From Gracilariopsis chorda (Eukaryota; Rhodophyta; Florideophyceae; Gracilariales; Gracilariaceae), in contig NBIV01000001.1 in assembly GCA_003194525.1 (NCBI GenBank), positions 372,001-436,000 of the forward strand: DNA of 64,000 bases, in the 5' to 3' direction. Below the pieces are notes generated by a model. The model was not told the origin of the DNA. It did no database searches and worked only from the letters and a program-made list of their open reading frames with translations. A program made the translations under genes and the position numbers. Shown piece after piece: positions 4,410 through 29,956 of this stretch; positions within the stretch are counted from its first letter, which is position 1, and every line of letters starts with the position of its first letter.

Positions 4410-4756
4410 AAGAAAGTGATTGAATATCTTTGTTAACAGAGACCCAGAGGTGAGCTCCCTACCTGCGACCACCAGAGGTGAGCTCGCTACATGCGACCAC
4501 CAGAGGTGAGCTCACTGCCTGCGACCACCAGAGGTGAGCTCGCTACCTGCGGTCGCCTCCGAGAAGCTCGCTATCTGCGGGCTCTCAAGAAGACCTTTCG
4601 CCTACCTGGAAAATAAAGGCAGCGTTCTCCCAGACAACTCGCTGCGCAGAACGACATCGCCTCCTTCTGGTTTTTTTTTTGCTTTCTCCCATCGCTCATT
4701 CCTTCGAATTCCTTCACCCCTCTACAGCACGCTATTGACGCCTACTAGGTATTATA
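4410..4756 (+). repeat. Left LTR of element C
   Basis: 347 bp, nearly the same sequence and order as 23024-23364: AAGAAAGTGATT start, TTTGTTAACAGAG, four 28-bp units, an AATAAAG signal, a T-rich stretch, and an end at TTATAG. Classic TG...CA ends are not evident, so the exact borders are approximate. Confidence 0.6.
4445..4556 (+). repeat. 28-bp tandem repeat, 4 units, in left LTR of C
   Basis: Four head-to-tail 28-bp units, each starting CAGAGGTGAGCTC and ending in GCGACCAC or GCGGTCGC: 4445-4472, 4473-4500, 4501-4528 and 4529-4556. The same array with four units is in the right LTR. Confidence 0.95.
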
Positions 4757-5131
4757 GTAATTACTCTCTTCACGAAGCACTCGTGAGTGTCAGTGCGTGT
4801 GAGGTACTTACCAAGATGCCACCGAGGGCCGCAAGGAAGACTTCGTCCGCTGGTGCCAGTGGAGCTACAGTGCGTCACACAGTCGTTGAGACGCTTGAAG
4901 CACCTCTTCTCACTGGCATTACGACGGCTAACTTTTTCAGCTTCAAACAGAAGCGCGAGATATATGAGCGTCGTGTTCAGGAGACGGGTTCCGAACAAGG
5001 AACCGAAATTCCTACCACGTCCTATCGCAACACCATCAAGAAGCCCGTTCTACAGATTTTCATTACAGCGCAATGGGTGCCTGTGAATGCAATGGAGGAC
5101 ATCAGCGAGGAACATTTGAAGAACTGTGCTG

Positions 5132-5952
5132 TGGTGCAATGCCCCAAAGGGGAAAAACATCGAAAGACGTCCAGGATCTTCCTCTCACGAGGTGAACCCA
5201 GTGGGGTAGAGCCCTCCCAGAGGTGTCACGGCGAAGCCGGTTTGTAAGACCGAGGCCACCCTTCGCGACTAGCGCAAGAGGGTTTAGGACAAGAATCGGT
5301 ATCCGCGAGAGCGCGATTGCGTCCTCGCCAGGGTAGGTTTCCACGTAGGTGGGGGTGTGTGAGCGGATGCGCACACGAGAGCCGCGGATAGCGGGAGGTG
5401 CTACCCTAAAAAGGAGAAAAGGAAGGGCGAAGAGGAGGAACAGAGGACGAAGTGAGTGGCGAGAGCGACGGGGACGAACGGCGATGCCGGTAACAATATC
5501 CCTATAGAGGGCGAAACACCAATGCAATTGGAATAATATGACTCCCAGTGATGGGTCTCTTTAGATGTGCAAGGGGGTTAGATGTCCCGTGGTTTACGGC
5601 GTTTCCCTCCAAGTAGGAGTAGAGCACGCGCGCAAGCGGTAACAACTAGAACCAATTCCCCAGGTTGGGGTCCCTGGTTGGGGAAGGTTTACGGGTGCGA
5701 AGGCAGTGCGCCGTCGCACTAAGTTCTAGCTTCCCAGAAATGGGTGTGAAAATAATAAATAATATTAACTAAAATACTCCACATTTCGTGGCAACCTCCA
5801 CTACTGTGGCCAACCGCCAATTGACCCAAAACCGTGTCCCACGTGCCCATACCCACCATTGTGGAGCGTAGTTCATATACACACTACACAACCGATAATA
5901 TCGGGAAAACAATCAAGTACCAAGAATCCCTCCCTGAGGGCGTTGCACTTCA
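5132..5952 (-). repeat. LTR 1 (3' LTR of element A)
   Basis: 821 bp beginning TGGTGCAATGCCCC and ending GTTGCACTTCA on the plus strand (TG...CA ends, with TGCAA/TTGCA near the ends as an inverted repeat). It matches 13114-13937 and 22201-23023 over its whole length. Like those copies it is full of short hairpins. No clear target-site duplication is visible. Confidence 0.92.
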
Positions 5953-6828
5953 TACCCCCCCTAAGACGGGAAAACGACCGCGGAAGCGGAGGATTCTGAA
6001 GTGCAATTCTCAAGGAGGAAGACTCAGCGATGCCCTGTGGACTTGGTGTTTTTGCCGCTTTCGCGTGTTTATGATTACTACCCCTATTAGCGGGTGTCTC
6101 AGCCCTCAGCGGATCCGCGCGGTGCGCCAGGTGCACACCTGTGCATGCGCCGTGTGCCGCCCAAGGCGTGAGTGGACCACGTGTGACACGGATAGTCAAG
6201 AGGAGGTTGGCACCACGGTGTGGACATTTGGTTAACTTATATATATTATTCATTATTTATCTACGCTACAGTAGGGAGGTTACTGCACTATATAGTGGCT
6301 CGGCGACCTCGCCCTGACACTGAGTAAAGTTCCCCAACCAGGGTTCTTGGCTCTAAGTCTTTTCTGCTTTCGCGAGTCTTCTGCACTCCTCGGAGGTAAA
6401 GCCGCGTTACTAACGGTAGACCTATCCACCCTGCGTCACTAGGAGTATCACCGCCTTGGGCACTTGTCACTTAATTCATCACCGCCGTGTTCTCGCCCCT
6501 GTATAGGGTTCCTTTGTACCTTTTTCCGTGGTTCCGTTGGCCCACACCCCTGTCGCCCCCAATCGGGCATCCCCCGTATTTCCCTTACCCCACTCTCGTG
6601 GTTCCTACCCCTTTGTGTGGTTGCTCGTCACCGCTGACACGTGTCTCTCGTGCCGGTATCCCGTGACGTCTTCTCCCACTCACGTGGACTCGTACTCCTT
6701 GGAAGGGCTGTTTTCCCATTGTTGGTGGTCCTAATCCTACCGTTTCAACTCTCCCCGCTTCGCGTGAGGGTGAGCCACGGCTTTACAACCCGACTTCGTC
6801 GTGCTCATCCGGAGAGGCTCCGTTCGCT

Positions 6829-8697
6829 GTGTTACCCTCCAGAGGGGAAGATCCGAACGTCTTCGTGTGTTGTCCCGCTTGCGGGTATTGCACTACAGAT
6901 TCCCAGACGAAAATGGGTGATAAAAGCGCGTGCTCTGTCTCCGGTTCTCCGGTAAATCCCTCTGCATTAGAGTCATCGAGCGCACAAACAACAACAACAG
7001 CCACCCTCAAAAAGGGAGAAATGAACAACGACAACAAGATCAACAACCACAGCCAACCTCCGAGGCCTCTAGGGCGATACACCACCGGTTTCCGTTCAGT
7101 TCCCTTGCCTCAGGGCGATCGACATCCGGTACAACCGGGGAGTATGGCTGCTGCAGCCGACCATCCCTTCGCACTACTACCTTCGGTGGGGTCCTCCAGA
7201 ACCGCTCCGGCGTTCAACTGGCCAACCTACAACACCCTGGTGGGGCTCAACCCGATGAATCGGAATCACGCGTCGCGCCTGCGCCTTGCCCCGTGGTTTC
7301 ACCCGGTCGCTGTCCTCAATGAGGGATTAGTCACCGCTTATGTGGATGGCTCAGACACCGTTCCGGGGGATCTGCCCAGGGCAGTCACCACATCGTGGGA
7401 TTGGCGTCACCGGATTGCGATTCCGCGTCACCACCTCCGAAGGAATTCGGGTGAGACCGTCGCTGCGGTGCAGACCCGTTGACGCGGATGGCATACCAAC
7501 GGCAGAGCCGGGCTCCATTCAATGTACCAGTCCCACCAGAGTTCGGCTTCGACATTAGCCACTTCCGCACTCGCGGGGAGAATGGATACAGCGACAACCA
7601 GTTCCGCCTCGAGACCCTCGCTTGGAGGAATTTCCCCGCAGCGTGGCAAGAAGCCCTTTGTTGGGAGCGACCGATTATTCGGGCGGAGTTCAGGTATCTT
7701 CCCCGGCAATACCGGTCCAACTTTCTCCAAAACTTCATCCACTATGAGCGGCGTTGGCGATCCCGATTCGGGTATTTCATCCCGTATCAGAACGTGGAGA
7801 TAGAGCGGATTGCGCCGCCTCACCGACTAGGTCGGTATGTAGACTCCCCGAGTGGTGGCGCTTCCATGAAGCCTGCCGGGGTGCTACATAGAACTCCCGC
7901 CGGTACTTATGTACCTCGGTTCGCTGCTCATGCAGGATCCCCGGTCGGGGTTGTGGTCCGTAGTGGTTACGGAGTGGGCGGCCCGCGCTGCGGCTTATAT
8001 CCTCAACGAGGCGTACGACCAGTTTCGTCTCTGGTTCCTCCCACCGCGTGTGCGGGCAGCGATCTGCAATTTGGATCTTCGCATCCCGCTTGGGGGCCAG
8101 GCCAACAATTAAGAGGTCCTGCAATTACTTGGGTACATCGACAGCGTTAGCTGGAGTGAGGTCTCGCTGGAGCAAAGCGGTCGTCTGGATGGCGGCAGCG
8201 GTAACACCGGTGGTCCGGGACTCGGTGGAAACACCCCCCTTGCGGGGGATTTTATCTACTTCGACCCTTGGGAGTTCCGGGAAATTTCCTCCGAGGAGGC
8301 GCGCGAGCTTCGCGATACGCCCCGGCATGTGCCGGAAGACCACCCTGTTGGTTACGTCGATTCTGACGACTACTATCGCGCATACGGCGGGGATGACCCA
8401 ATGGTCGATAACGAACCGGGAGAACCCGGGGAGATGGACGTAAAGGAAACCGGCGCTAGCGCGGAAGCTTTCCCAGAGGGGGTTTCTCCGGCTGAGCCGG
8501 CTGCTGACCCTTCGGCGGCAAGTGCCGGGCCTTCTATCCCCAGCGGGGTGACGGCGAATGAAAACGAGATCATCGCACGTTTTCTCCGGGGTGCCGGTCT
8601 GAGCGCTGCCGAGGTATCGGGGGATGTCACCACCATGGCGGACGCGTTGGCCTACCGCCTCGCTGGTGGTTACGCCCCGGACGATGGGGGTGAGTGA
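6829..8697 (+). other. Antisense open-frame block inside element A
   Basis: Between pol and the LTR of A, the plus strand (opposite to gag-pol) holds a run of open frames: about 6829-7482 (a Met codon at 6912 starts MGDKSACSVSG), 7479-8150 and 8329-8697. The encoded sequence is Pro/Gly/Arg-rich. A central part is rich in aromatic and Arg residues (for example EFGFDISHFRTRGENG and NFIHYERRWRSRFGYF) and the last frame is acidic and Ala/Pro-rich. I recognise no domain, no signal peptide and no membrane segment, so I do not call it env. Some plant Ty3/gypsy lineages are known to carry antisense additional ORFs, and this may be a similar case. Copy B keeps only short flanking pieces of this block. 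It is part of a fossil element and not intact. Confidence 0.5.
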
Positions 8698-11600
8698 AAC
8701 CTCTAGTCCAGTTTCCTGGTTCTTCTTTCCCTGGCTATGCCAGTTAGTGTAGTGTAGTATGGAGCTTGCTGCTCCACTAGGTAAACTTTCCCGTCTCGGA
8801 CGGTGATTTCCATTTAGAATTCCCCGTCTTGGACGGACTTTCCCTTTCTATCCCTTCTTGCTGCCCTCCGCTCGCGCGGCAGCGTTACCCGACTTGGGCA
8901 TTAACCAGCGTGGGTGGGGCTGCAGTTCCCGTTTGACGGTGGTATCGCACGACCAGTGATCGTGGGAGGTGTTCAATTGGCTCCCACGTATCCCCACTGG
9001 GGTCATACCCGTACCAGCGGACGCGGTATTGTAGAATACCATCCTGGTCCCAGTTGTGTCCGACAAGTCGGTCTACTACGAACTCTCGCTCGTAGACCTG
9101 CCGGCCGTGCCGGGTGGTGGTTGTATTCCCTTGCGAGGGTTGCCCGCTGTGCGGTATACTGCCCCCCATCCGGGTTGTCGGCGATGTCTCCGGCGTTGCC
9201 GTGCGCTGTCCTAGTGGCCGCTGCTCATGCGGGAAAATATCCCTCAAGAGGGTGTGTGGCGTCACGGTTTTCACCGGCAAGTCGTTCCCCAGAAGGGTGT
9301 CGTTGTTCCCGTCTTCACAGTAGGCCGGGCGAACCACCAACCGGCGGGGGACTTGAACTCCGCGAGTGCGGTCTTCTTCTCGAACCACGAGCATGCCGGG
9401 TCTTTGCCGCGTATGCGGGAACGGCGTTTGCGACATCCCCTGCGGGGTCCCGTGCGACACGGTGATTGGTAAGCGTTCCGCCTCCCTGCCAGGTGCACGA
9501 GCGCTCTGCACCATACGTTCCGGCGACGCCGTGGTGTCCCTGGTTACTGACGGGTTGCCTGGGGCTAACCCCGGTACACCGGTATTTTGGTCAAAATTCC
9601 CCTTTCGAGGGTGCCGGGCAGATGCCGATGACACCCTTTTCAGGGGACTTGCCGCTAAGCGCGGTGCACCGTCTCCATGAGGAGGGGCAGCGTCCGGTAC
9701 GACCTGGTTTCGAGCGTGCGATGGCGCGCGTTTTTCCCGAGTTCCTCGGTTCTTCGCCGCAGCGTTGCGGGGGTTGGCGCAAAATTTTCCCCGGAGCGGG
9801 GGCTTCCATTTCGTCGACGACGGGAGGCGTTTCCGGCGCTTGCGCGCCAGCGCCTGAAGCTTCGACTGTGGCTTGGCTGCCTTTTCCCTGATAGGGGTGT
9901 GCGGTAGTTGCGCTTCAACCTCCCGTGTAGCACGGTATAATTGCCGCTTTTGCGTGGCCTGCGCGTCTGGCTCTTGTTGCGCAGCATTGCCCGAGAACGG
10001 GTAATTAGTGTCGCTTAACATACTCCGTGCTCCACTTTCAGTGTTCCGTATGTTACGGTGTGTTTCCCGTTGCGACGGCGATAGCGTTCCTCGAAAACGA
10101 GTGTTCTCCTCCCCCTCCTTAGACGAAGCGGCGGGATAAGGGATAACATTCCCCGCCTGGCGGGTGTAAATTCGCGCCAGGGGGGTGGGCGTGGTAGGGG
10201 CGGGCGCTGAGAGGCCCGAACTACCCGGCTGAGCCGGTGAGTCCGACAGGGTCGGTAGGTCTAAGAGTCCCCGGCTGGGGTGTGGTAATACCGTAGGCCT
10301 AGTACTCCCGGATGATTCCGTTGTTGCAGAGTGCGTAGAAACGGGGTTTCCTGGATCCAGGACTACCTCTGACGAGGGAGGAGGGGCAAGGACAACACGA
10401 TCACGGGAAATCCGTTCGTGCGTGTCCCCCATCTCTACCACGACAGTGTCGGTGTTCACAGAGATGACCTTGAATGGTCCATCCGCCACAGGCCAGAGTT
10501 TGTGGCGCTTCTCCCGTTCCGGGTTGTAGTACTCCTTCCTAATGAAGACGTAGTTATTCGCCCGAATCGGGGACAGTTTCCCTCGCAAGCGAGCATCAAA
10601 ATCCCGCTTGTAAGCGGCTTGGGCCCGTGCCATCGACATCCGCGCGGCGGGGACCAGCTTGGAAAGCCATTGCTTCCATTGCTTCCGGTAGATACTCACT
10701 GATGGGGAATTGTCCAAGGTAGCTTGGGGTTCCAGCGCCACAGGCGGGGGTGTTCTAGATAGAACCAACTCGAATGGCGAAACTCCGGTAGTCCGGTGTA
10801 CCTGCGTGTTGTACGCGTAGGTTACCGCATCAGCGTACATGTCCCAGTTCTTTGGGTGGTCTGCGACGTAGGAACGTAACGCCGCGAGTAACGTCCAGTT
10901 AAACCGTTCAACTTGCCCATTACACTGGGGGGTGGTAGGTAGTCGTGAACAAGTTCTTGACATCCAGGATGCGACAAACATCCTGGAAGAACTTGATCAC
11001 GAACTGTTTCCCGTTATCGGAGAGCACCTCCACAGGGGGACCGTAGACGAAAATCCAGTGCGTCACCAGAGCCTGGGCCACCGTGAGAGCGGTTATCCTC
11101 CGAAGAGGGACAGTCCATACAAGCTTAGAAAAGCGGTCGGTAATGACAAGTAGAAACTTGTTTCCACGTTTTGTGGTGAGTAGTGGTCCGAGAATATCGA
11201 TCGCGATAAACTCGCGCGGCGCCCTTGCGAGGAATAGTTTCATCTTCTTCGCATTTTTGCGGAGTTTCACGCGATTCTTCGCGCATTCGCTACAAAACCG
11301 CACGGTTGCGTAGCAATCCACCGCCATGGCGGGCCAATAGAAATCCCTTCGCAGGGTTAGGTAGAGTTTCCTCCCACCTGGGTGACCTCCAATAGGGGCG
11401 TAGTGTGATAGATGTAACACCCGCGATTGCAGAGAATGTGGTACCACAATCTGTGTGCGGGCTTCGACCTTTCTTACGAGGTAGCCTTTGTCGTTTACCC
11501 CGAAAGGGAGATCTTCACCACCGTTGATACGGGCACGAATTCTCGTACAGAATGGGTCGCCGAATTGTTCTCGGATCATTTCTTCCGGTGATACCGGTAC

Positions 11601-13113
11601 AAAGTTTCCCGGTAACGGGTTCTCAGATTTATCTCGCGATGCGAGTAGTTCGTCAAAGTCAGCATCCTCGTCCCAGTTTTCTGGCCCAGCCTCGACGGCA
11701 TATTCCGGATCATCCGGGTCTATAGCCATGAAACATGGGACTTCATCATTCTCCGTTGCGAGTGCTTCCCCACTTGTGGGTAACCGCGACAAAGCGTCGG
11801 CCTGGGTGTTCTGCGCACCCTTTTTATAAATGACTTGAAAGTCATATTCCGCGAGGCGGAGTCTCCAGCGCATGAGGCGTCCCGACGGATCGGAGATATT
11901 CATTAACCACCTCAGCGAGCAATGTTCCGTGTACACGGTGAAGTGAACTCCCATAAGGTAGGGGCGCAGAGTGGTCATCGCCCATACGACGGCGAGGCAC
12001 TCTTTCTCCGATACGGAGTAGTTCCGATCATGAACATTGAGCGAGCGCGACCAATAACCAATTGGGTGTCGTTCCCCCTCGGGGGTGGTTTGAAAAAGAG
12101 CACACCCGACTTGGTAGTCGCTCGAGTCCGTATCTACGGAGTAAGGCAACCCAAGTTTTGGGAGATGTACGATTGGTGCTGATGTGACAGCCTCCTTAAA
12201 GGAGTTAAAGGCTTCCGATTGCTCGGGCGTAAATGTTCCCAGTTTTGGGGGGTTCCCCTTTCGTAACAACGCGTTCAGGGGCGCCGCGGTATCCGAAAAG
12301 TTCGGGATAAACCGTCGATAGACGTTGACCAGCCCCAAAAAGGAGCGCCGTTCCGTTTGAGTACGGGGCTTATTAGCCTCAACGAGGGATTTGACTCGAG
12401 CTTTCTCGATCGCTAACCGTCCAGGACGGATAATGTGACCCAGATACCTCACAGTATCTGTGAAAAACTCGCATTTCCTCAACTTGAGGGTAATTCCCGC
12501 ATCGCGGAGTACGGTCAGCACGTCTCGGACGTGAGTGAGATGGTCGTCCAACGAGTTGGAGAAGATGATAATATCATCAAGGTAGACCAGACAACTCCGC
12601 CACTTAAAGCAGTTGAGTAGAATATCTACTGCACGCTGGAAGGTGGCGGGGGCGTTAGTCAGCCCAAATGGCATCCGCTTGAAGCGGTAGGTCCCTGCGT
12701 GGCAGGTGAATGCGGTTTTGTCGCGATCCTCCAGTCTGACAGGTACTTGCCAATATCCCCAATTGGCATCAAGGGCCGTGAACACGGTGGCGTCTCCAAG
12801 GGAGTCAATACACTCGTCCATACGAGGGATAGGGTACGTGTCTCTAGTGGTCACGGCATTGAGCCGGCGGTAGTCGACACAGAACCTCTAGGTTCCGTCG
12901 GCCTTTAAAGCCAGTACAACTGGGGATGCCCAGGGTGATTGAGCGGGCTCAATCACACCTGCGCGGAGCATCTTGTCCACTTGGGACTGCTCCTCTTCCC
13001 GAGCTTTCGGACCTGCCCTGTTAGGGGGTTGTGCAACCGGTCGCGCACTGGGGATTAAATCGATCCAGTGTTCCGTTGCATTAATCTCGCTAAGCGAGCC
13101 ATCCCACATTGTG

Positions 13114-13937
13114 TGGTGCAATGCCCCAAAGGGGAAAAACACCGAAAGACGTTCGGGATCTTCCTCTCACGAGGTGAACCCAGTTGGGTAGAGCCCTCCC
13201 AGAGGTGTCACGGCGAAGCCGGTTTGTAAGACCAGGGACACCTGTCGCGACTCGCGCAGGGAGGTGAAGGCGAAGAATCGGTATCCGCGTGAGCGGGGTG
13301 TGATCCTCAGTAGAGGTATGTTTCCACGTAAGTGGGGAAGTGTGAGCGGGTGCACACACGAGGGCCGCGGATAGCGGGAGGTGCTACCCTAAAAAGGGGG
13401 AAAAGGAAGGGCGAAGAGGAGGAAGAGAGGACGATGTGAGTCGCGAGAGCGACGAACGGATACGGCGATGCCGGTAACGATATCCCTATACAGGGCGAAA
13501 CACCAATGCAATTGGAACAATTATACTCCCAGTGATGGGTCCCTTTAGATATGCAAAGGGGGTTAGGTGTCCCGTGGTTCACGGCGTTTCCCTCCAAGGA
13601 GGAGTAGAGTACGCGCGCAAGCGGCAACAACTAGAGCCAATTCCCCAGGTTGGGGTCCCTTGTTGGGGAAGGTTTACTGGTGCGACGGCAGTGCGCCGTC
13701 GCACTAAGTACTAGCTTCCCAGAAATGGGTGTGAAAATAATGAATAATAATAACTAAAATACTCCACATTTCGTGGCAACATCCACTACTGTGGCCAACC
13801 GCCAATTGACCCAAAACCGTGTCCCACGTGTCCATACCCACCATTGTGGGGCGTAGTTCATATACACACTACACAACCGATAATATCGGGAAAGCGTTCA
13901 AGTACCAAGAATCCCTCCCTGAGGGCGTTGCACTACA
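13114..13937 (-). repeat. LTR 2 (3' LTR of element B)
   Basis: 824 bp, TGGTGCAATG start, TGCACTACA end on the plus strand. It contains about 20 short perfect hairpins, for example CCCCAAAGGGG (13124), CCAATGCAATTGG (13503), CCGTGGTTCACGG (13572), CCCCAGGTTGGGG (13643), CCGATAATATCGG (13877) and CCCTCCCTGAGGG (13913). The longest has 8-bp arms, GCGACGGC with GCCGTCGC (13682-13702). Confidence 0.92.
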
Positions 13938-14179
13938 TATCCCCCCCCTAAGACGGGAAAACGACCGCGGACGCGGAGGGTTCCCAGACGAAAATGGGTG
14001 ATAAAAGCGCGTACGCCGTCTCCGGTTCTTCTTTCCTAGCATAGCCGGCTATTGTAGTATAGTGTTGTGGGGAGCTAGCTGCTCCCTTGAATAAACTTTC
14101 CCGTTTTGAACGGTGATTCTCATTTGAGTTCCCCGTCTTCGACGGACCTTGACTTGTTATCCTTTCCTTTCGCTCTCCG

Positions 14180-17100
14180 CTCGCGCGGCAACGTTACCCA
14201 ACTTGGGCATTAACCAGCGTGGCTGGGGCTGCAGTTCCTGTTTGACGGTGGTATCGCAGGACCTGCGATCGTGGGAGGTGTTCAATTAGCTCCCACGTAT
14301 CCCCACTGGGGTCGCACCCGTACCAGCGGACGCGGTATTGTAGAATACCATCCTGGTCTCAGGTGTGTCCGACAAGTCGGTCTACTACGAACTCTCGTTC
14401 GTAGACCTGCCGGCCGTGCCGGGTGGTGGTTGTACTTCCTTGCCGGGGCTGCCCGCTGTGCGGTATAATGTCCCTTAGCAGGGTGTTCGGCAATAACTCC
14501 GGCGTTGCCGTGCGCTGTGATAGCGGCCGCTGCTCATGCGGGAATATATCCCTCAAGAGGGTGTGTGGTGCCACGGTTTTCACCGGCAAGTCATTCCCCA
14601 TTGGGGTAGGTTCATTTCTGCTTTCGCGGTAATGCGGGCGGACCGCCAGTCGGCGGGGGACTTGGGCTCCGCCTTCGCGGTTGAGCTCACGAACCGCGAG
14701 TTTGCGGGAAGATGACCGCTCCTGCGGGGTCGGCATTTCCACAATCCCCTGGGGGTCCCGTGCGACACGGTGATTGGGTGGCAAACCGCCTCCCTGCCAG
14801 GCGCACGAGCGCTCTGCACCATACGTTCCGGCGATGCCGTGGTGTCCCCGGCTACCGACGGGTTGCCTGGAGCTAAGTCCGGTACACCGGTATTTCGGTC
14901 AAAATTCCCATCTGGGGGGTGCCGGGCAGGTGCCGATGACACCCTTTTCAGGGGAATTGCCGCTAAGCGCGGTGCACCATCTCCATGAGGAGGAGCAGCG
15001 TCCGGTACGACCGGTTTCGAGCGTGCGATGGCGCGCGTTTTTCCCGAGTTCCTCGGTTCTTTGCCGCAGCGTTGCGGGGGTTGGCGCAGATTATTCCCCG
15101 TAGCGGGGGCTTCGATTCCGTCAACGACGGGAGGCGTTTCCGGTGCTTGCGAGCCAGGGCTTAAAGCTTCGACTGCGGCTTGGCTGCCTTTTTCCCCAAG
15201 AGGGGTGTGGTTATCTCCCTGTGAGGCCGGCGTATCTGGGCGCCCCTTCTCCGTAAGGCGCGGGTCTGATCGACCTGATTGAACCGCTTCCGCGGGGGCT
15301 TCCGCCAACGGCGGCTTCGAGGCATCGCCCTGCTCAGGGGATCGGGGGCAATCGTCACCATACTCCCTTGTCAGGGATCCTTCCCTGACAGGGGTGTGCG
15401 GTAGTTGCGCTTCAACTTCCCGTGTAGCACGGTATGTTTTCCGCGTTTGTGGCGATGCCTCCGGGGATGGATTGGGCGATTGCCTTTCCGCTGCTGCGGT
15501 ATTGGAGTGAGGCTTCTCGTTTTCCCGTGACAAACGGTGTATTTGCCGCTTTTGCGGGGCCTGCGCGTCTGGTTCCTGTTGCACAGCACTGCCCGGGAAC
15601 GGGGGATTAGTGTCGCGTGACATACTCCGTGCTCCACGGTCAGTGTTCCGTATGTTACGGTGTGTTTCCCGTTGCGACGGCGCTATCGTTCCTCGAAAAC
15701 GAGTGTTCTCCTCCCCCTCCTTAGACGGAGCGGCGGGATAAGGGATAACATTCCCCGCCTGGCGGGTATAGATGCGCGCAAGTGGGGCGGACGTGGTAGG
15801 GGCGGGCGCTGAGGGGCCCGAATTACCCGGCTGAGCCGGTGAGTCCGACAGAGTCGGTAGGTCTGAGAGTCCCCGGCTGGGGTTTGGTAGTACCGTAGGT
15901 CTAGTACTCCCGGATGGTTCCGGTGTTCCAGAGTCCGTAGAAACGGGGTTGCCTGGATCCAGGACTATCTCTGACGAGGGAGGAGGGGCAAGGACAACAC
16001 GATCACGGGAAATCCGTTCGTGCGTGTCCCCCATCTCTACCACGACAGTGTCGGTGTTAACAGAGATGACCTTTAAGGGTCCATCCGCCACAGGCCAGAG
16101 TTTGTGACGCTTCTCCCGTTCCGGGTTGTAGTATTCCTTCCTGATGAAGACGTAGTTATTTGCCCAATTCGGGGACGGTTTCCCTCGCAAGCGAGCGTCG
16201 AAATCCCGCTTGTAAGCGGCTTGGGCCCGTGCCATAGACTTCCGCGCAGCGGGGACCAGCTTGGAAAGCCATTGCTTCCATTGCTGCCGGTAGATACCCA
16301 CAGATGGGAAATTGTCCAAGGTAGCTTGGGGTTCCAGCGCCACAGGCGGGGGTGTTCTAGATAGAACCAACTTGAATGGCGAAAATCCGGTAGTCCGGTG
16401 TACCTGCGTATTGTACGCGTAGGTTACCGCATCAGCGTAGAGATCCCAATTCGTTGGTTGGTCAGCGACGTAGGAACGTAACGCCGCGAGTAACGTCCGG
16501 TTAAACCGTTCAACTTGCCCATTACACTGGGGGTGGTAGGTAGTCGTGAACAAGTTCTTGACATCCAGGATGCGACAAACATCCTGGAAGAACTTGCTCA
16601 CGAACTGCTTCCCGTTGTCAGAGAGCACCTCCACATGGGGACCGTAGACAAGAATCCAGTGCGTCACCAGAGCCTGGTCCACCGTGAGAGCGGTTATCCT
16701 CCGAAGGGGGACAGTCCGTACCAGCTTAGAAAAGCGGTCGGTGATGACAAGTAGAAACTTGTTTCCACGTTTTGTGGTGAGTAGTGGTCCGAGAAGATCA
16801 ATTGCGATAAACTCGAGTGGCGCCCTTGCGGGGAATAGTTTCATCTTCTTCGCATTTTTGCGGAGTTTGACGCGATTCTTAGCGCATTCGCTACAAAACC
16901 GCACAGTTGCGTAGCAATCCACCGCCATTGCGGGCCAATAGAAATCCCTTCGCAGGGTTAGGTAGAGTTTCCTCCCACCTGGGTGACCTCCAATAGGGGC
17001 GTAGTGTGATAGATGTAACACCCGCGATTGCAGAGAATGTGGTACCACAATCTGTGTGCGGGCTTCGACCTTTCTTACGAGGTAGCCTTTGTCGTTTACC

Positions 17101-19325
17101 CCGAAAGGGAGATCTTCACCACCGTTGATACGGGCACGAATTCTCGTACAGAATGGGTCGCCGAATTGTTCTCGGATCATTTCTTCCGGTGATACCGGTA
17201 CAAAGTTTCCCGGTAACGGGTTCTCAGATTTATCTCGCGATGCGAGTAGTTCGTCAAAGTCAGCATCCTCGTCCCAGTTTTCTGGCCCAGCCTCGACGGC
17301 ATATTCCGGATCATCCGGGTCTATAGCCATGAAACATGGGACTTCATCATTCTCCGTTGCGAGTGCTTCCCCACTTGTGGGTAACCGCGACAAAGCGTCG
17401 GCCTGGGTGTTCTGCGCACCCTTTTTATAAATGACTTGAAAGTCATATTCCGCGAGGCGGAGTCTCCAGCGCATGAGGCGTCCCGACGGGTCGGAGATAT
17501 TCATCAACAACCTCAATGAGGAATGATCCGTGTACACGGTGAAGTGAATTCCCATAAGGTAGGGGCGCAGAGTGGTCATCGCCCATACGACGGCGAGGCA
17601 CTCTTTCTCCGATACGGAGTAGTTCCGATCATGAACATTGAGCGAGCGCGACGAATAACCAATTGGGTGTCGTTCCCCCTCGGGGGTGGTTTGAAAAAGA
17701 GCACACCCGACTTGGTAGTCGCTCGAGTCCGTATCTACGGAGTATGGCAACCCAAGTTTTGGGAGATGTACGATTGGTGCTGATGTGACAGCCTTCTTCA
17801 AGGAGTTAAAGGCTTCCGATTGCTCGGGCGTAAGTGTTCCCAGTTTTGGGGGGTTCCCCTTTCGTAACAACGCGTTCAGGGGCGCCGCGGTATCCGAAAA
17901 GTTCGGGATAAACCGTCGATAGACGTTGACCAGCCCCAAAAAGGAGCGCCGTTCCGTTTGAGTACGGGGCTCATTAGCCTCAACGAGGGATTTGACTCGA
18001 GCTTTCTCGATCGCTAACCGTCCAGGACGGATAATGTGACCCAGATACCTCACAGTATCTGTGAAAAACTCGCATTTCCTCAACTTGAGGGTAATTCCCG
18101 CATCGCGGAGTACGGTCAGCACGTCTCGGACGTGAGTGAGATGGTCGTCCAACGAGTTGGAGAAGATGATAATATCATCAAGGTAGACCAGACAGCTCCG
18201 CCACTTAAAGCGGTTGAGTAGAATATCTACTGCACGCTGAAAGGTGGCGGGGGCGTTCGTTAACCCAAACGGCATCCGCTTGAAGCGGTACGTCCCTGCA
18301 TGGCAGGTGAATGCGGTTTTATCGCAATCCTCCTGTCTGACAGGTACTTGCCAATATCCCCAATTGGCATCAAGGGCCGTGAACACGGTGGCGTCTCCAA
18401 GGGAGTCAATGCACTCGTCCATACGAGGGATGGGGTACGTGTCCCTAACAGTCACGGCATTGAGCCGGCGGTAGTCGACACAGAACCTCCAGGTTCCGTC
18501 GGCCTTTAAAGCCAGTACAACTGGGGATGCCCAGGGTGATTGAGCGGGCTCAATCACACCTGCGCGGAGCATTTTGTCCACTTGGGACTGCTCCTCTTCC
18601 CGAGCTTTCGGACCTGCCCTGTTAGGGGGTTGTGCAACCGGTCGCGCACCGGGGATTAAATCGATCCGGTGTTCCGTTGCATTAATCTCGCCAAGCGAGC
18701 CATCCCACATTGTGGTGAATTCCCGTAACATAGTACGGAGTTTGTCGCGGTGCGACTCTGGCACGTGGCTGAAGTCCAGGGCTTCAAGTGCTTTTTCCGG
18801 ATCAATCCGGTCGTTGCTCGATGGAGCATTGTCCTGTGGAACAGGTGTGGTTCGCAATTCCGAGTTACTCGGTATGTTCGACGCTGAAGTAGCGGTTTCC
18901 TCCCCCTCCTTAGACTTGACGTCTTCGGACGGCGGGGCGAACTCCTCGGAAGAGGTGGTAACTCCGAGTACATCGGCGGCTGTCATCTTTGTTGGCAGCA
19001 TTCCCATAGGATGGGGGGTTACACTCCCAATTACTTGGTGTTTGACCAGATACTGAGGGTATTTGCCAAGGTTGGCAACCAATATCCGGAAAGGGACATC
19101 CGGGGAAATGGAGACAATTCCATTAGCCAGCGCCAGCTGGGATTTCTCGTACAACGAGGCGAGGGGTTGTATAACCCGAAGACCGTGTTGACGGGAATTT
19201 ACCTGCACCCAGACTTGGGACTCCGCCGGTATAGAAACCGAGGCAGCGACGCAGAGCTTGGTGGACTCGCGGGACGCGGGCGGTGGTTCCTGCGCACCAG
19301 GGAGCGGAACTTGTTTCCGAGACAA
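14180..19325 (-). mobile_element. Element B pol region: RT, RNase H, integrase, chromodomain
   Basis: Open minus-strand region of Ty3/gypsy type. The reverse transcriptase is marked by YRRLNAVTVRDTYPIPRM, FKRMPFGLTNAPATFQ and VYLDD. RNase H is marked by YSVDTDSSDYQVG. Integrase has a zinc-binding HHCC region (HLSHYAPIGGHPG ... FCSECAKN) and a DDE core (FIAIDLLGP, LSDNGKQFVSKF, CNGQVERFNRTL). A long Pro/Arg-rich spacer follows, then chromodomain sequence (YEREFVVDRLVGH) near the 3' end. Chromodomains of this class are known to steer integration towards marked chromatin. The long frame at 14580-19325 is largely open; the element is treated here as a fossil. Confidence 0.9.
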
Positions 19326-19355
19326 CCGCTTTAGCGGGCGGCGAACAATCGGAAC

Positions 19356-19901
19356 CTACGATCCGTCGTCAAGTTCTACACGCCTGAGGCGGGGCCTGAT
19401 TGCGTCGAGAAATCTGTCGCAGTAATCACATCTCAGTATGACTGGTGCTGCCAATGAACGGCAAACGATGAAGTCCAACTTCACCACAGAGGTACCAAGT
19501 CTCACGACGAGGTCCACTGTGCCCACCGTTTGTATCGGATTGTTGTTCGCATCTGAAATGTCGGGGACCGCGTCAGAGCGGATACGCAACCGCACAAGCG
19601 GGGGTAACAATGATTCCACAACAAAGTTGGGGCCTGCACCTGTATCCAGGACGGTGAGAAACCTCACCATAAACTGGGGGTCAAGGCCAAGGTCGGCATA
19701 GACCTTATAATTGCGCTTGGCCAAGACCAAGACTCTACCGGGAATCCGGGGATTTTTACTCCGTATCCACGGGCGACGCAACACACCGAGGTGCGCAGAG
19801 TCCGCGTCAGCGGTGTCTTTCCTCGAGAGGACTTTCACCGGGGAGCGAAGCGAGGACGCCTCGGGCACCAACAGCCTCGTTCTTGAGGACGCCTCTCCCA
19901 A
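19356..19901 (-). mobile_element. Element B aspartic protease region
   Basis: Open frame with a retropepsin-type active-site motif, VLDTGAGPNFV, followed by hydrophobic strands (VDLVVRLGTSVVKLDFIV) typical of a retroviral-type protease fold. It lies between gag and pol in the normal Ty3/gypsy order. Confidence 0.75.
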
Positions 19902-19918
19902 AGGGGAGACTCCCTCAT

Positions 19919-22092
19919 TTAGTTTTCCGCCTTCGGCGGTGGGTTGGGTTCCTCGACAACGAGTGCTTCATCCCGTTGACGGGGGTTTCTATCCTCATAA
20001 GCGGGGGTTGCAACGGATGGTTGCGTGATTTCCCGAATCGGGGTATATGCAGCTTGCCGCGCACGCGGGGTCTGTGGTAGGGCATGGGAAATGTCCGTTT
20101 TAGCACGGAGGTAGGAAGCCGTCGGGACGGAACGTTTCTCCTCTGGAGTGAGGGCCTCATAATTTGCCACTACCTTGGCCATATCCTTCAGTGAACAAAT
20201 ACACTGAGGTGAGGTATGGCCATGGGCATAGCACAGGTGGCAAATGAGAGCCAATACCGCGACACGCGAATTATTATTCCGAGTATCGGAGAAGCGAACC
20301 GCAGGGCGGGTGTCAGTCCATCCAGGCCGTTGATAACGGGATTGACCGTTTGAAAACGGGAGTCGTTGGGGTTGGACCCGACTGTTACCACCGTACAAAA
20401 CGGGGTCTTCCGTTCCCGTATCACGGGTCATCTCCGTCGTTGACGGCAAATCACTGGTGGGTATCGAGACACCATTCCCCTGCACTAAATGCACGGTATC
20501 AAATCCCTGTCCAGGGTTCCCATCCGCAGTGAGTGGGAGTGAGGAAGCTTCGCTTTCCAGCAACAATGCCTTGGCGGATTTAGACCGATTGTTCGGAGTT
20601 CTTGCACGAAGTGCATCCCCTTCCGCTCGGGCGTGTTGGAACAGCTCGAGATAGGTGATCCTCCGCTTGTCCTCCCGATAACGGGTAACTAAACTCCGGA
20701 TTGCCGGGTCAAGACCATCGATGAACATGGTACTGCGCTCCCCAGCGGGGTATACGTTACCACATCTGTGGAAAGCCTTGTTAAGGCGCACCGAGTAATC
20801 GGTCTCGGTCTCTCCAGCACGTTGGCGTGTATCTCGCAAAGCGAGGATAGCCTGCTGAATAGCGGTGTTTGTGGCGTAGGAGTGCAGAAGATACTGCACA
20901 GCCTCCGGCCAGCAAGTAACCCCTCCCTCGGAGGCACGAGAAGATCCTCTGACAGAGTTGTATTGGTCCTCCGCCACTCCCCGTAAGAAATACGGGAAAG
21001 CCAAATAGGCTTGTCCCTCATTCATACCGAGGATATTGGCCTCCACTACAAAGCGGGATAGGAAATCCAGTACTAGGACTGGGTCCTCTCCAGTAAAATA
21101 CTGCTTGCAGAGCGAGAGCTGCATTCGCTTAATGCATTCTCGCCCCTTTCCCGTACCACGGGGCGTACGTCCAAGTGACGAATCTTCGAGCCGGTAGTAC
21201 CGGTATGATAAAAGCTTCCGGTAATCCGGGTTTGTCGGTTTCAATTCCCGGAGACCGGGGTGTCTTCTCCCCTTCTGGCGGGTTCGGATCACACCTTCAG
21301 TGGCCGATGACCGCTCAAGCGGGAGGAGTAGCCTCGCTTCTCGTCCTCCGAGTCGGAGTCCGAGGAGCTCGAGCTAACCGAATGGTTTCGGGATGAGTCC
21401 GACGATGTCGAAGAATCGGAGTCCGAATATTTTCGGTGGTGTTTCCGTCGATGACGGCGTTTCTTCTTCCCAGCAAGCTGGTCGTTGTGCGATGCATCGT
21501 TTACTAGATCATCCGGGGATGGTTTGTCCATGAGGACGAACTGCTCCAGCGTCTCCAGGCGGGCACCAATCCGATCAAATCGGGCTTCAACTCCTTCGAT
21601 GAAGGTGGCGGGTTGTCCCAAACTCTCCAACACGGAGTTGACGTCATACCGTAAAATACGGAGTTCCTCGGCGACCTCCTTTACGGGGGTTGCCAAGACC
21701 ACCTCTTGGAGGGATTTTAGTTCCCCTACAAGGGTGTCATGGGCGGTCCACAGAGCGCAGACCTGGGATTCCAGGGACGTCCCCTGGGGGGTGTTATCGC
21801 CGGTTCCACGGGGGCTTGAAGCCGCGACAGCGGGAGCAGGCCGGGGTGCCTGGGGCACTGCGGCAACAGCCGGAGTCGATGCTGCATTCCCCTGCGGGGG
21901 TGATAACCAGGGCAAAAGGAGGTTCCGGGGTTCCCGGTCGGGGGTATCATTCCGCGATGAAGCGGCGCCAGCACGGCTGGAACTTGTCCGTATAGGGATA
22001 CGGGGTACGAACCGGACTTCGGAAGTGTCCGCGTTGTCGCGGGAGAGACTACGCGTCACCACTGGCTCCGCATCGGAGGGATTTCTCGACAT
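19919..22092 (-). mobile_element. Element B gag region
   Basis: Two abutting open frames. The first (22092-21289) is a Ser/Arg/Pro-rich N-terminal part ending in a run of basic residues and Ser/Asp repeats. The second (21292-19919) has a capsid-like helical region (LDFLSRFVVEANILGMNEG, YLLHSYATNTAIQQAILAL) followed by one CCHC zinc knuckle (CHLCYAHGHTSPQC). This is the usual nucleocapsid arrangement. Ty3/gypsy elements commonly make gag and pol as separate or read-through products. Confidence 0.8.
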
Positions 22093-22200
22093 GAGAAAAT
22101 ACCGTTACGACGTGAAACGATCACGGAATTTCCGGTGAATGAAAATAAACCTAGTAAGATGGAAAACAAAAAACCGATTCTAGGTCGGGAGACTATTTTA

Positions 22201-23023
22201 TGGTGCAATGCCCCAAAGGGGAAAAACACCGAAAGACGTTCGGGATCTTCCTCTCACGAGGTGAACCCAGTTGGGTAGAGCCCTCCTAAAGGTGTCACGG
22301 CGAAGCAGGTTTGTAAGACCAGGGACACCTGTCGCGACTTGCGCAGGGAGGTGAAGGCGAAGAATCGGTATCCGCGTGAGCGGGGTATGATCCTCAGTAG
22401 AGGCATGTTTCCACGTAAGTGGGGGTGTGTGAGCGGATGCGCAAACGAGGGCCCCAGATAGCGGGAGTTGCTACCCTAAAAAGGGGAAAAAGTAAGGGCG
22501 AAGAGGAGCAAGAGAGGACGAAGTGAGTCACGAGAGCGACGGGGGCGAACGGCGATGCCGGTAACGATATCCCTATACAGGGCGAAACACCAATGCAATT
22601 GGAATAATATGACTCCCAGTGATGGGTATCTTTAGATGTGCAAGGGGGTTAGATGTCCCGCAGTTTACGGCGTTTCCCTCCAAGGAGGAGTAGAGCACGA
22701 GTGCAAGCGGTAACAACTAGAGCCAATTTCCCAGGTTGAAGTCCCTTGTTGGGGAATTTTTACTGTTGCGACGGCAGTGCGCCGTCGCACTAAGTGCTAG
22801 CTTCCCAGAAATGGGTGTGAAAATAATAAATAAAATCAACTAAAATACTCCACATTTCGTGGCAATATCCACTACTGTGGCCAACCGCCAATTGACCTAA
22901 AACCGTATCCCACGTGTCCATACCCACCATTGTGGGGCGTAGTTCATATACACACTACACAACCGATAGTATCGGGAAAACATTCAAGTACCAGGAATCC
23001 CTCTCTGATGGCGTTGCACTTCA
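22201..23023 (-). repeat. LTR 3 (5' LTR of element B)
   Basis: 823 bp matching LTR 1 and LTR 2, TGGTGCAATG start and GCACTTCA end on the plus strand. The sense-strand sequence just inside it (rich in CTCCCGACC and CGGTTTT) does not start with TGG, so the primer-binding site is not obvious. Confidence 0.92.
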
Positions 23024-23364
23024 AAGAAAGTGATTCAACGTCTTTGTTAACAGAGATCCAGAGGTGAGCTCGCGACCTGCGACCATCAGAGGTGAGCTCG
23101 CTACCTGCGACCACCAGAGGTGAGCTCACTACCTGCGACCACCAGAGGTGAGGTCGCTACCTGCAGTCGCCTCCGAAAAGCTCGCTATCTGCGGGCTCTA
23201 ATAAGATCTTTCGCCTACCTGGCAAATAAAGGCAGCGTTCTCCCAAACAACTGGCTGAGCACAACGACATCGCTTTCTGGATTTTTTGCCTTCTCCCATC
23301 GCTCATTCCTTCGAATTCCTTTACCGCTCTACAGTACGCTATTGACGCCTACTAGGTGTTATAG
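23024..23364 (+). repeat. Right LTR of element C
   Basis: 341 bp matching 4410-4756, including four 28-bp tandem units at 23059-23086, 23087-23114, 23115-23142 and 23143-23170 and an AATAAAG signal. It begins directly after the end of LTR 3, with no outer-element coding sequence between. Confidence 0.65.
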
Positions 23365-23390
23365 GTGCAAACACAATGTTTTGTTCTGCA

Positions 23391-23430
23391 AAATCTCGTA
23401 GCGTTCGTGTAAATCGTGACTACGAGATTT
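23391..23430. repeat. Inverted repeat, 11-bp arms
   Basis: AAATCTCGTAG and its exact reverse complement CTACGAGATTT, separated by 18 bases. Lies 26 bp beyond the right LTR of C. Function unknown. Confidence 0.9.
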
Positions 23431-25104
23431 GATACGCGATTTTCTACGGGGTTAATCCTCTAATGTGAAAATAAAGCTGCGATACAAGGGGTGGGCAGGA
23501 GTTTCCCCCCTCGTAAACGCCACCATGACGATCAAGACGATGATTGTTTTAGAAGTAATCTTAGTGGATAACTTTTATAATGTTATCGATATGCACTCGG
23601 TGAAAGCATGCGCGTAAAGACGAGATTTGTACTACATACTGTATTATGTAGAAGTTATGTTGTAAATCGAGTTCAAATCGCTGAGCACGACACGAGCAAA
23701 ATTAGGCCCGATCCGAAGGCAAGGGACCAATTTGCTGTAAAGTGCCCCGCGATTTGAACGAGATTTGCAACATAACGTGCTTATCTCACTGCATGAGTTC
23801 AATATTTTTGATACATCTGATATTTCGTTTGCCTCACAGTTCAAATATCTGATATTTGAACTGCCCCGTTAAATATTGAACAGTTTCCTTGAGATAAGTG
23901 TTAATGACAGAAGATTTAGCCACTCAAAAGCTTCTTGATTGCTTTCGCAGCAGAGTAGCTTCTATTTTTCGAATACATGAACTATGATATGAGATGATGT
24001 CTGTCTCCTATCTTCAAATCTAGAAGGTCTCCAAGATTCCGCCGTTCTTCGCAGTAACGGTCTCTCTGCAAAAGTACCCTTGTAGTCAACATGCAAGTCA
24101 CTATATACCATGTATCCAGGCAACAGAGGCTAAAAAGCAAAAATTGTTTTCGAGAAACGAAACCGTGACTCTACAAGTAGTCCAAGAAACTAAGCAGAGA
24201 TCCAGAAATGCTCTTGACGAGAAAGCAGTTATTTGAAGAAACCTGGCTACTACAACGAAGGAAGGAGACGTATGCTCATATCGTGCACACGAAACGGGCC
24301 TATTGAAAGATTACTTCTTGCTTCACTGAAGCAAGAGGTAATCTGCCAGAAGTGTAAGTTTGTGTTGATTGTTTATGAGCTTTCGCTCTTAGTTCCGACA
24401 GCACGGTAGGAAGATTTGCCAAAAACAAGAACAATAACACATTCTAGCAAATGATTTGTTTTAAACCAAGGGTTTATGAGCTAACCCTTTAACTCTTTAC
24501 CAAGCACCGAAGGGTAGTTGTTTGCACTCTACACTGTTGTATTGGCATTCGCTTACAATACATGATTGCTTCTTTCTCCGGCCATTGCAATTATATTGCA
24601 CGTTCTAAATGCAATCGCAGTATCGATTCAAGAATAGAAAGTTTCGAATAAAGGATAAGGGTTAGTATCACACTCTTGTGGACCTGGGAGGTATGTCGCA
24701 AAAAGCCCCCAAATATCCGCGCGACAGCAGTAGGCTTGGAATTCTTCATCAGAAGACTACTCTACCACCGTTTCCCTGACTTTTCTTCATCCTGGATGAG
24801 CTCCAACCGAGACAAGATGCGATCGGGGTTTTTCCAGGGTTTTTCTCGGAAGGTTTAGGATAGGGTTCATGGACCTTGAACAGTTTCAGGCTGATTCTCT
24901 TTTTGTCAATGTCGCCGACGATATGAGGATTGGAAGAAGATAACGCAATCATGATCTTCTGGTTGCACAACGTGGTACGTGCAGAGCGCCTTGTCGTGGG
25001 GTGCCCCTTAGCCGATGACCTATATAGAGGGAGAAGGAGAGGTAGAAATTTAGGGAACAAGGGATGAAAAGTGATCATCGGCAGGCATGGAAAGCAATCG
25101 ATTG

Positions 25105-29615: not shown

Positions 29616-29956
29616 GAACACGGGCGTCGTCCATCAAGCGTCCGGTCGTCAGAATTGGGTCTGACAGTCCGCCGTCCAGACTGCCCGTTGTCCCAAAACA
29701 AGATACATTTTTTTTGTACCGGATCATACGAAAACCTTACCCATTCAACACAATCAGCTACCAGTGCATACGTGCCCTTCCAAGCAGACATGCAAGCCAA
29801 CACGGATAACCAAGTATCCACCTTCTTCCTCAATTCCATGAGTCTATTCGTATGGGCCGTATGATAAGCCACCTTTAGGTTGAACCTTCGACCGTCTACC
29901 CTTTTCTGCGATGAGAATGCCAAACACTATCGTACAAGCTCCCCATACACCACTCG

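What the first reader, a model, noticed from the sequence alone, without database searches (positions are those of the whole stretch)
5132..23023. Chromoviruses A and B are saturated with short C-first hairpins, in LTRs and in coding sequence
Counted by eye: LTR 2 (824 bp) holds 20 perfect hairpins with arms of 4-8 bp and loops of 2-5, for example CCTCTCACGAGG 13163, CCTCAGTAGAGG 13305, CCACGTAAGTGG 13324, GTCGCGAGAGCGAC 13440, CCCTATACAGGG 13484, CCCAGTGATGGG 13528, CCCAGAAATGGG 13718, CCCACCATTGTGGG 13837. The coding stretch 18617-18955 (339 bp) holds 14, for example CCCTGTTAGGG 18617, CCGGATCAATCCGG 18797, TGCTCGATGGAGCA 18815, CCTGTGGAACAGG 18833, CCGAGTTACTCGG 18860. For arms of 5 or more, a random sequence should give roughly 2 there; I count about 9. 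The C-rich arm comes first in nearly all. gag, the RT region and the antisense block look the same; adjacent host genes do not. It could reflect selection on genome RNA structure, or repeated insertion of tiny hairpin units. I know of no description of this.
Basis: partly seen in the sequence, partly recalled or inferred. Interest (0 to 1): 0.82.

Follow-up and report, generated by a model that had tools for sequence, protein, structure and literature searches.

The report
Retrotransposons tiled with tiny hairpins
A group of jumping genes in a red seaweed genome carries, along nearly its whole length and even inside its protein genes, short exact hairpins spaced about 20 letters apart, apparently kept by selection, which suggests that its genetic material is folded into a regular beaded string for a purpose not yet known.

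Summary
All 13 quoted hairpins are in place. Elements A/B (5132-23023, minus strand, Ty3/Gypsy) hold 515 non-overlapping hairpins (arm >=4, loop 3-5) against 183±11 in dinucleotide shuffles; synonymous shuffles of B pol give 13.6 CC..GG hairpins against 86; seven host ORFs show no CC..GG excess. The form is sharp: arms mostly 4-5 bp, loops 3-4 nt, outermost pair C..G 383 times, G..C 58, linkers under 5 nt avoided, centres near 20, 41, 63 nt.

Not inserted units: an 80%-identical relative aligns with 22 gap columns in 6127; stems diverge 5-12%, loops 26-27%, linkers 21-22%. Private variants do not significantly spare stems; pooled double changes are compensatory more than chance (38 of 66, p 0.002). 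This points to substitutions under selection.

Not ordinary RNA-structure selection: at matched RNA energy Watson-Crick hairpins are enriched 11.6x, G.U 1.7x, A.C 1.9x. Four related families have it strongly, L056 and L041 weakly, L039 and the three copia families sampled not. My guess, unproven: a nucleocapsid-binding array acting on RNA and cDNA.

The parts
5132..5952 (-). LTR 1 (3' LTR of element A in the sense direction), 14 C-first hairpins, 17.1 per kb
5953..8815 (-). 3' block of element A; long plus-strand ORFs, three of which were scanned without a Pfam match; 32 C-first hairpins, 11.2 per kb
8885..10996 (-). element A pol ORF, C-terminal part with chromodomain (PF00385)
10920..12887 (-). 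element A pol ORF: RT, RNase H, integrase; CC..GG hairpins 29 against 4.2 in synonymous shuffles
13114..13937 (-). LTR 2, shared between A and B; 19 C-first hairpins, 23.1 per kb
13938..14579 (-). B 3' part, 13 C-first hairpins, 20.2 per kb
14580..19355 (-). element B pol ORF (1591 aa: RT, RNase H, integrase; no chromodomain match inside it); 83 C-first hairpins; CC..GG hairpins 86 against 13.6 in synonymous shuffles
19356..22104 (-). element B gag region by position (ORFs 19919-21373, 21289-22104, 19356-19967; no Pfam gag match), 48 C-first hairpins
20201..20242 (-). CCHC zinc-knuckle motif (CHLCYAHGHTSPQC) in the 484-aa ORF
22105..22200 (-). short leader next to the 5' LTR, no C-first hairpin in 96 bp
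22201..23023 (-). LTR 3 (5' LTR of element B in the sense direction), 15 C-first hairpins, 18.2 per kb
18860..18872 (.). example of the favoured form: 5-bp arms, 3-nt loop, CC/GG base
13718..13729 (.). example of the second favoured form: 4-bp arms, 4-nt loop; a 20-mer holding it occurs 1096 times in the genome

Best explanation
A group of Ty3/Gypsy elements in a gracilarioid red alga has been shaped by selection, through point substitutions, into an array of exact Watson-Crick mini-hairpins: 4-5 bp arms, 3-4 nt loops, a CC/GG base, neighbours about 20 nt apart. SHOWN: excess, geometry, polarity, spacing, stem constraint, very uneven distribution among elements, no preference for wobble over other mismatches. 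INFERRED: the array is a repeating binding site for an element-encoded protein that coats the whole genome, most likely Gag/nucleocapsid, about one hairpin per Gag, and it must work on both the genomic RNA and the minus-strand cDNA made from it inside the particle. A G.U in one strand is an A.C in the other, so only Watson-Crick pairs satisfy both; the CC/GG base would be the recognised end; the footprint sets the minimum linker. It could serve to pick out and condense the element's own nucleic acid.
For: Excess and geometry. Spacing: in B plus LTRs gaps of 0-4 nt 10 against 34.6 expected, 5-13 nt 95 against 56, second rise at 26-30 nt (23 against 16) where one hairpin would be skipped; centre distances peak near 20, 41, 63. 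Stem constraint: third codon positions in RT-IN 0/100 stem against 15/334 outside (B-A) and 1/111 against 33/387 (B-L042); B/L069 stems 12.1% (B-called) or 5.4% (L069-called), loops 26-27%, linkers 21-22%; A/B 3' region stems 4-5%, outside 15%, loops 20-22%. Private variants show no significant stem deficit in 8 mask tests (p 0.07 to 0.90; f3 0.070 against 0.046 per site, f2 0.012 against 0.018, f1 LTR 0.17 against 0.19 with mask W2), which argues against a mutational cold spot in resident copies. Pooled compensation 38 of 66 against 38.8% by chance, p 0.002. Both strands: energy-matched wobble test; DNA parameters deviate more, alike on both strands. Element-specific: copia loci (12 of 12, but only three families, ten loci being 97-99% alike) and L039 at background in the same host. 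[quoted passage not shown] The putative Gag ORF has a zinc-knuckle motif.
Against: No protein binding is shown. The match of 20 nt to Ty3 is one number from another element. L056 has a similar zinc knuckle but only a weak excess (C-first 23 against 6.2±2.7 in 8 kb). The restriction is graded, not absolute: L041 (55% protein identity) has a slight whole-stretch excess (C-first 19 against 9.6±2.8; all 96 against 64.4±7.9) without C-first polarity of the outermost pair (25 against 30). A stretch of L055 (4471-5695) 65% identical to B's gag region has none (1 against 1.0), by absence or decay. Across families about 65-69% identical, stems are hardly better conserved than the rest when called in B (third positions 63/108 against 240/381; B/f3 stems 33%, outside 32%). 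In B/L069 alone compensation is not in excess. Stem singles show more A.C than G.U (94 to 59; control 3481 to 3354; p 0.011), hinting at the minus strand alone. Between -5 and -3 kcal/mol G.U and A.C hairpins are enriched 3-4x, perhaps decay of exact ones. Fixed LTR differences in stems are only weakly below outside (18/164 against 92/546, p 0.08), though well below loops (22/69). Gap exclusion is not clear in the A 3' block alone (8 against 10.1).
Confidence: 0.33

Rival explanations
1. Evasion of host RNA silencing: both RNA strands are made self-structured so that small guides and their targets fold on themselves, or sense and antisense RNA anneal poorly.
For: The genome encodes two long Piwi-domain matches and two ORFs each with two RNase III domains, which I read as Argonautes and Dicer-like proteins; selection on both strands explains why G.U is not preferred; the unit is close to usual small-RNA length (recalled).
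Against: The copia families sampled (three, 12 loci) and L039 in the same host lack the array; avoidance of linkers under 5 nt has no reason here; small-RNA length in this alga is unknown to me.
Confidence: 0.15
2. Selection on the sense RNA alone (genome-scale ordered RNA structure, or classical dispersed packaging signals).
For: 200-nt windows of B are more stable than shuffles as RNA (mean z -1.55); dispersed stem-loops with a shared base motif.
Against: G.U hairpins of the same RNA energy are enriched 1.67x against 11.57x for Watson-Crick ones; stem singles favour A.C over G.U; arms above 6 bp are rare (13 against about 6.5 expected, loops 3-8) and the most stable 20-nt RNA hairpins of B are enriched 1.1x.
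Confidence: 0.1
3. A mutational process of reverse transcription: nascent cDNA folds back, copies its own arm and returns to the template, writing exact hairpins without selection.
For: Copying gives exact Watson-Crick arms whatever their stability; the process would act on all parts of the element alike. The private-variant test concerns resident copies and does not exclude it.
Against: It should lengthen arms and convert most stem mutations into compensatory pairs; arms mostly stop at 5-6 bp and uncompensated single changes far outnumber compensated ones (303 against 38). Broken hairpins of B/L069 have about 1.7 changed pairs each (87 in 52); clustering of changes on one arm was not tested. 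Minimum linker and CC/GG base unexplained.
Confidence: 0.14
4. A double-stranded-DNA function after integration or in the pre-integration DNA: small cruciforms or a chromatin protein reading extruded hairpins.
For: Strand symmetry and the larger deviations with DNA parameters.
Against: Arms of 4-5 bp are very short for cruciform extrusion (general knowledge); private variants in resident copies do not significantly spare stems.
Confidence: 0.12
5. Base composition or chance.
For: The elements are more GC-rich than most of the flanks.
Against: Dinucleotide, codon-order and synonymous shuffles do not reproduce it; 11 copia loci at GC 0.49-0.51 (two families) and one at 0.39 show nothing; genome-wide the mirror of one hairpin pattern occurs 1419 times against 9080.
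Confidence: 0.01

Closest known systems
Dispersed packaging signals in RNA viruses (review PMC6281560; abstract, and the highlights in the search listing, seen)
   Same: Multiple dispersed motifs in the genome with a shared recognition feature
   Different: Here neighbours lie about 20 nt apart, pairing is exact Watson-Crick, the constraint looks strand-symmetric and the size is fixed; protein binding is not shown
Genome-scale ordered RNA structure (recalled; only search listings seen)
   Same: Whole-genome excess of internal base pairing above shuffles
   Different: Wobble pairs not favoured, longer RNA hairpins hardly enriched, 12-14 nt units with polarity and spacing
Ty3/Gypsy chromoviruses
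   Same: LTRs, zinc-knuckle ORF, RT-RNase H-integrase, and in A a chromodomain
   Different: No hairpin tiling of them turned up in the paper searches made
Mobile GC clusters and double-hairpin elements of fungal mitochondrial DNA (recalled, no call)
   Same: Many small GC-rich hairpins in one genome
   Different: Those are inserted units; these are built by substitution, differ from one another and lie in coding sequence too

Membership tests
Chromovirus (Ty3/Gypsy with chromodomain) | RT, RNase H and integrase between LTRs | tested here: met
   PF00078, PF17917, PF17919, PF17921, PF00665 in A and B; LTRs
Chromovirus (Ty3/Gypsy with chromodomain) | C-terminal chromodomain | tested here: inconclusive
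   PF00385 found in A; not found in B's pol ORF nor in ORF 14359-14898. The B sequence that should correspond to it by the A/B alignment lies past the end of the pol ORF and was not read
Genome-scale ordered RNA structure | Folding energy below that of composition-matched shuffles along the genome | tested here: met
   B sense RNA mean z -1.55, host -0.19
Genome-scale ordered RNA structure | RNA stability is what is selected, so G.U pairs serve | tested here: not met
   energy-matched G.U 1.67x against Watson-Crick 11.57x
Dispersed packaging signals | Multiple stem-loops across the genome with a shared motif | tested here: met
   CC/GG base and fixed size
Dispersed packaging signals | They act in the genomic (sense) RNA | tested here: inconclusive
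   G.U not preferred on the sense strand; slight A.C excess points to the minus strand
Dispersed packaging signals | Specific binding of coat or Gag protein | not testable with these tools
   needs binding assays
Inserted hairpin units | Hairpins gained or lost as indel units | tested here: not met
   22 gap columns in 6127 aligned

The most novel reading that the evidence does not exclude
A retrotransposon lineage has written a second, strand-symmetric code over its whole genome: Watson-Crick-exact hairpins about 20 nt apart that set one protein subunit per hairpin on both its RNA and its cDNA, a built-in nucleocapsid ruler overlaid on LTRs and protein-coding sequence.
Probability: 0.25. Interest if true: 0.95.

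Novelty: categorically new. Interest (0 to 1): 0.85.

Why it matters
A structural constraint of this density laid over coding sequence would be exceptional, and here it can be read directly from sequence. If it is a nucleocapsid array it would show how a Ty3/Gypsy particle chooses and packs its nucleic acid and would give a sequence-level measure of a Gag footprint. Whatever the mechanism, it looks like selection on secondary structure that is symmetric between strands, which RNA-structure scans that accept G.U pairs are not designed to single out. If the packaging reading holds, it becomes a new variant of dispersed packaging signals.

Tried and rejected
Insertion of hairpin units: rejected by the nearly gap-free alignment. 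Mutational cold spot in resident copies: not supported by private variants. Deamination shield: transitions are not specially reduced in stems (73 of 131 stem against 532 of 988 linker differences). Antisense-RNA-only selection: A.C mismatches 1.90x against 1.5-1.7x for the others, mainly C..A (54 against 21.0); suggestive at most. Specific loop families: no dominant loop, loops are merely A/T-rich. Strict 21-nt lattice: periodogram power is low (top 5.2 at 20.25 nt in B), so I read the spacing as a preferred linker, not a long-range ruler. Relatives in viral contigs and genome contigs: 0 of 11 and 0 of 42 pattern stretches confirmed, so other algae could not be compared at DNA level. Papers: searches for hairpins, palindromes, stem-loops, ordered RNA structure or packaging signals with retrotransposons found 4, 5, 0, 0 and 2 papers; I saw titles and the start of abstracts, and of two papers more: PMC6525542 (found by one search; passages) and PMC6281560 (abstract and outline). 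None of the listed titles describes this. Searches on the host and its small RNAs gave nothing that I used.
Full report
WHAT IS THERE. The window is part of contig C1 of a 91.3 Mb genome in 1081 contigs. A host ORF (29915-32134, a ubiquitin hydrolase) has its best named hits in Agarophyton chilense (78% over 98%) and Gracilaria domingensis (83% over 82%), so the host is a gracilarioid red alga; species not determined. Positions 5132-23023 hold two tandem Ty3/Gypsy elements on the minus strand with three LTRs. A has a chromodomain; none was found in B's pol ORF. A lacks the 5' part: its sequence after LTR2 begins at the equivalent of B position 4310. Of the six flank ORFs scanned, five match ordinary host protein families and one matches nothing.

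OBSERVATION. All 13 quoted hairpins are exact. In 2-kb windows hairpins with arm >=5 are 2.0-5.3 times the dinucleotide-shuffle mean across 4001-24000 (z up to 13.4); the other windows lie between 0.44 and 1.97 except 36001-38000 (2.92, no C-first polarity). By loop length the excess is confined to loops of 1-5 nt (loops of 1 and 2 being loops of 3 and 4 whose end bases also pair); loops of 7-20 give 0.48-1.25 (arm >=4). By arm and loop: 5/3 110 against 15.0, 4/4 203 against 54.9, 5/4 51 against 14.5, 4/3 127 against 58.1; arms of 7 or more with loops 3-8 total 13 against about 6.5, among them six 9-bp arms where fewer than one is expected. The outermost pair is C..G in 70.6% (31.1% expected), the next in 59.7%; inner pairs are of all kinds and loops are A/T-rich. 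CC..GG frames of 12 nt are perfectly paired 142 times against 9.0 expected, of 13 nt 80 against 2.5; of 15 nt with six pairs 0 against 0.6. A C-first hairpin reads C-first on both strands, so the polarity is not a strand effect.

CODING SEQUENCE. With codons exchanged only among synonymous positions, CC..GG hairpins in B pol number 86 against 13.6 (z 20.2), in the main gag ORF 24 against 2.8, in the A pol pieces 34 against 5.7 and 29 against 4.2; for seven host ORFs z is -0.5 to 0.9.

SPACING. Gaps between neighbouring C-first hairpins in B plus LTRs: 0-4 nt 10 (34.6 expected for random placement), 5-13 nt 95 (56.0), 14-25 nt 33 (51.5), 26-30 nt 23 (16.0). L042 repeats this (6 against 17.9; 55 against 30.1; 19 against 30.0; 13 against 10.1); the A 3' block alone does not show it clearly. 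Pooled over five sequences, 381 gaps: 8 at 0-4, 49 at 5-9, 36 at 10-14, 15 at 15-19, 14 at 20-24, 22 at 25-29. Where hairpins follow each other the unit is about 20 nt, without long-range phase.

WHICH ELEMENTS. Fifty loci came with three searches: 8 of 1096 LTR matches, 30 of 150 scored RT matches, 12 of 150 scored copia matches. All 8 LTR and all 30 RT loci show the CC..GG excess; the RT loci belong to two further families about 70% identical in protein to B (f2, 7 loci; f3, 23 loci). In f3 the C..G pairs sit one step further in. Synonymous-shuffle z for C-first hairpins in RT-IN: B 13.3, A 11.3, L042 12.1, f2 8.1-8.7, f3 4.7-6.0, L041 0.3. The sister element L069 was fetched because its LTR family is about 78% identical. 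Of 12 random 8-kb stretches, L042 is a hairpin element (C-first 113 against 11.7), L055 holds one such LTR (17 against 4.3), L056 (59-67% protein identity) is weakly enriched (23 against 6.2) and L041 (55%) slightly (19 against 9.6); L039, which holds a distant RT, has 6 against 4.0 and the other seven 2-7 against 3.7-7.5. Part of L055 that is 65% identical to B's gag region has no excess. Copia: 12 of 12 loci with z between -1.2 and 0.9, but they are three families, ten loci being 97-99% alike. Genome-wide CCGTNNNNACGG occurs 9080 times, its mirror 1419.

HOW IT EVOLVES. B against L069 (79.9% identity, 6127 columns, 22 gap columns): of 100 B hairpins 48 are intact in L069, of 69 L069 hairpins 48 are intact in B; 52 centres coincide (control 3.4±1.8, max 11). 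Stem divergence 12.1% (B-called) and 5.4% (L069-called), loops 26.6% and 26.3%, linkers 21.1% and 21.6%. Calling hairpins in one sequence can by itself halve apparent stem divergence, so the B-called ratio (0.57) alone is weak; the L069-called ratio (0.25) and the contrast with loops are less easily explained this way. In RT-IN third codon positions 0 of 100 (B-A) and 1 of 111 (B-L042) stem sites differ, outside 15 of 334 and 33 of 387, loops 4 of 36 and 2 of 39. Private variants among 19 of the 23 f3 loci (four short ones left out), 7 f2 loci, 10 f1 LTRs and 7 f1b LTRs show no significant difference between stems and outside (8 mask tests, p 0.07-0.90), while differences fixed between the LTR families are 18/164 in stems, 22/69 in loops, 92/546 outside (mask W2). 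This suggests that stems are spared while elements replicate, not afterwards. Compensation: seven comparisons in both directions gave 74 compensatory of 125 double changes, expected 48.2; with five of the seven and each pair counted once, 38 of 66, control 38.8%, p 0.002. The B/L069 pair alone has no excess (7 of 17). Between families about 65-69% identical most hairpins have turned over (5 shared centres, 0.4-1.4 expected by shifting) and third positions of B stems differ from f2 about as often as the rest (63/108 against 240/381), although the property is kept.

WHICH MOLECULE. If sense RNA folding were selected, G.U should replace A.U. Over seven sequences, CC..GG frames with one inner mismatch are enriched 1.62x for G.U, 1.90x for A.C, 1.50-1.71x for other mismatches, against 10.5x for perfect ones. 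At equal RNA energy (-3.5 to -0.5 kcal/mol, five sequences): Watson-Crick 156 against 13.5, G.U 37 against 22.2, A.C scored on the opposite strand 48 against 24.9; between -5 and -3 G.U reaches 3.1-3.5x and A.C 3.2-4.4x, Watson-Crick 12.5-17.2x. In 14-nt windows DNA parameters separate B, f2 and f3 from shuffles better than RNA parameters in most tail fractions, for L069 the two are close, and B's two strands behave alike; in 200-nt windows z is -2.1 against -1.5 for B. So either DNA is the folded molecule or both strands are constrained. Among stem singles A.C exceeds G.U (94 to 59; control 3481 to 3354, p 0.011), a hint of the minus strand.

MECHANISM. The property covers LTRs, gag, pol and 3' blocks, stops at the LTR ends, has a minimum linker, a limited hairpin size and a fixed base, and in the sample examined is strong in one group of elements and absent from L039 and three copia families of the same host. 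This suggests an element-encoded protein that coats the full-length nucleic acid with a footprint of about 20 nt. [quoted passage not shown] That step is inference. Silencing evasion is the main host-side rival, since Argonaute and Dicer-like genes seem present.

LIMITS. The host's species, expression data and DNA from other algae were not available; viral contigs and genome contigs gave no relatives. Copies are related, so variant counts are not independent. Controls keep composition or codons, not phylogeny. Whole-genome searches list only the best-scoring matches, so families far from those sampled may differ.

Noticed in passing
13113 in A, against 18714 in B: Element A's sequence after LTR2 begins at the equivalent of B position 4310 (sense), so the leader and gag part are missing; A looks like a deleted copy sharing LTR2 with B.
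   Followed up: partly
4410-4585 and 23024-23199: A 176-bp sequence just right of LTR3 has a 93% identical copy 546 bp left of LTR1.
   Followed up: no
5953-8815: Several overlapping plus-strand ORFs (194-271 aa among those scanned) antisense to element A, no Pfam match; an antisense gene or only open frames.
   Followed up: partly
G000 contigs C483, C648, C777, C944: Piwi-domain fragments, many with stops, repeated at about 8-kb steps and with matches on the opposite strand a few hundred bases away; perhaps a repeat family that holds an Argonaute piece.
   Followed up: no
L001 440-2056: A younger f1 LTR, apparently solo, sits inside an older f1b LTR (nested insertion).
   Followed up: partly
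family f3 (L014, L035 and kin): C..G pairs prevail at the second and third position from the outside while the outermost pair is of any kind: a different dialect of the same pattern.
   Followed up: partly
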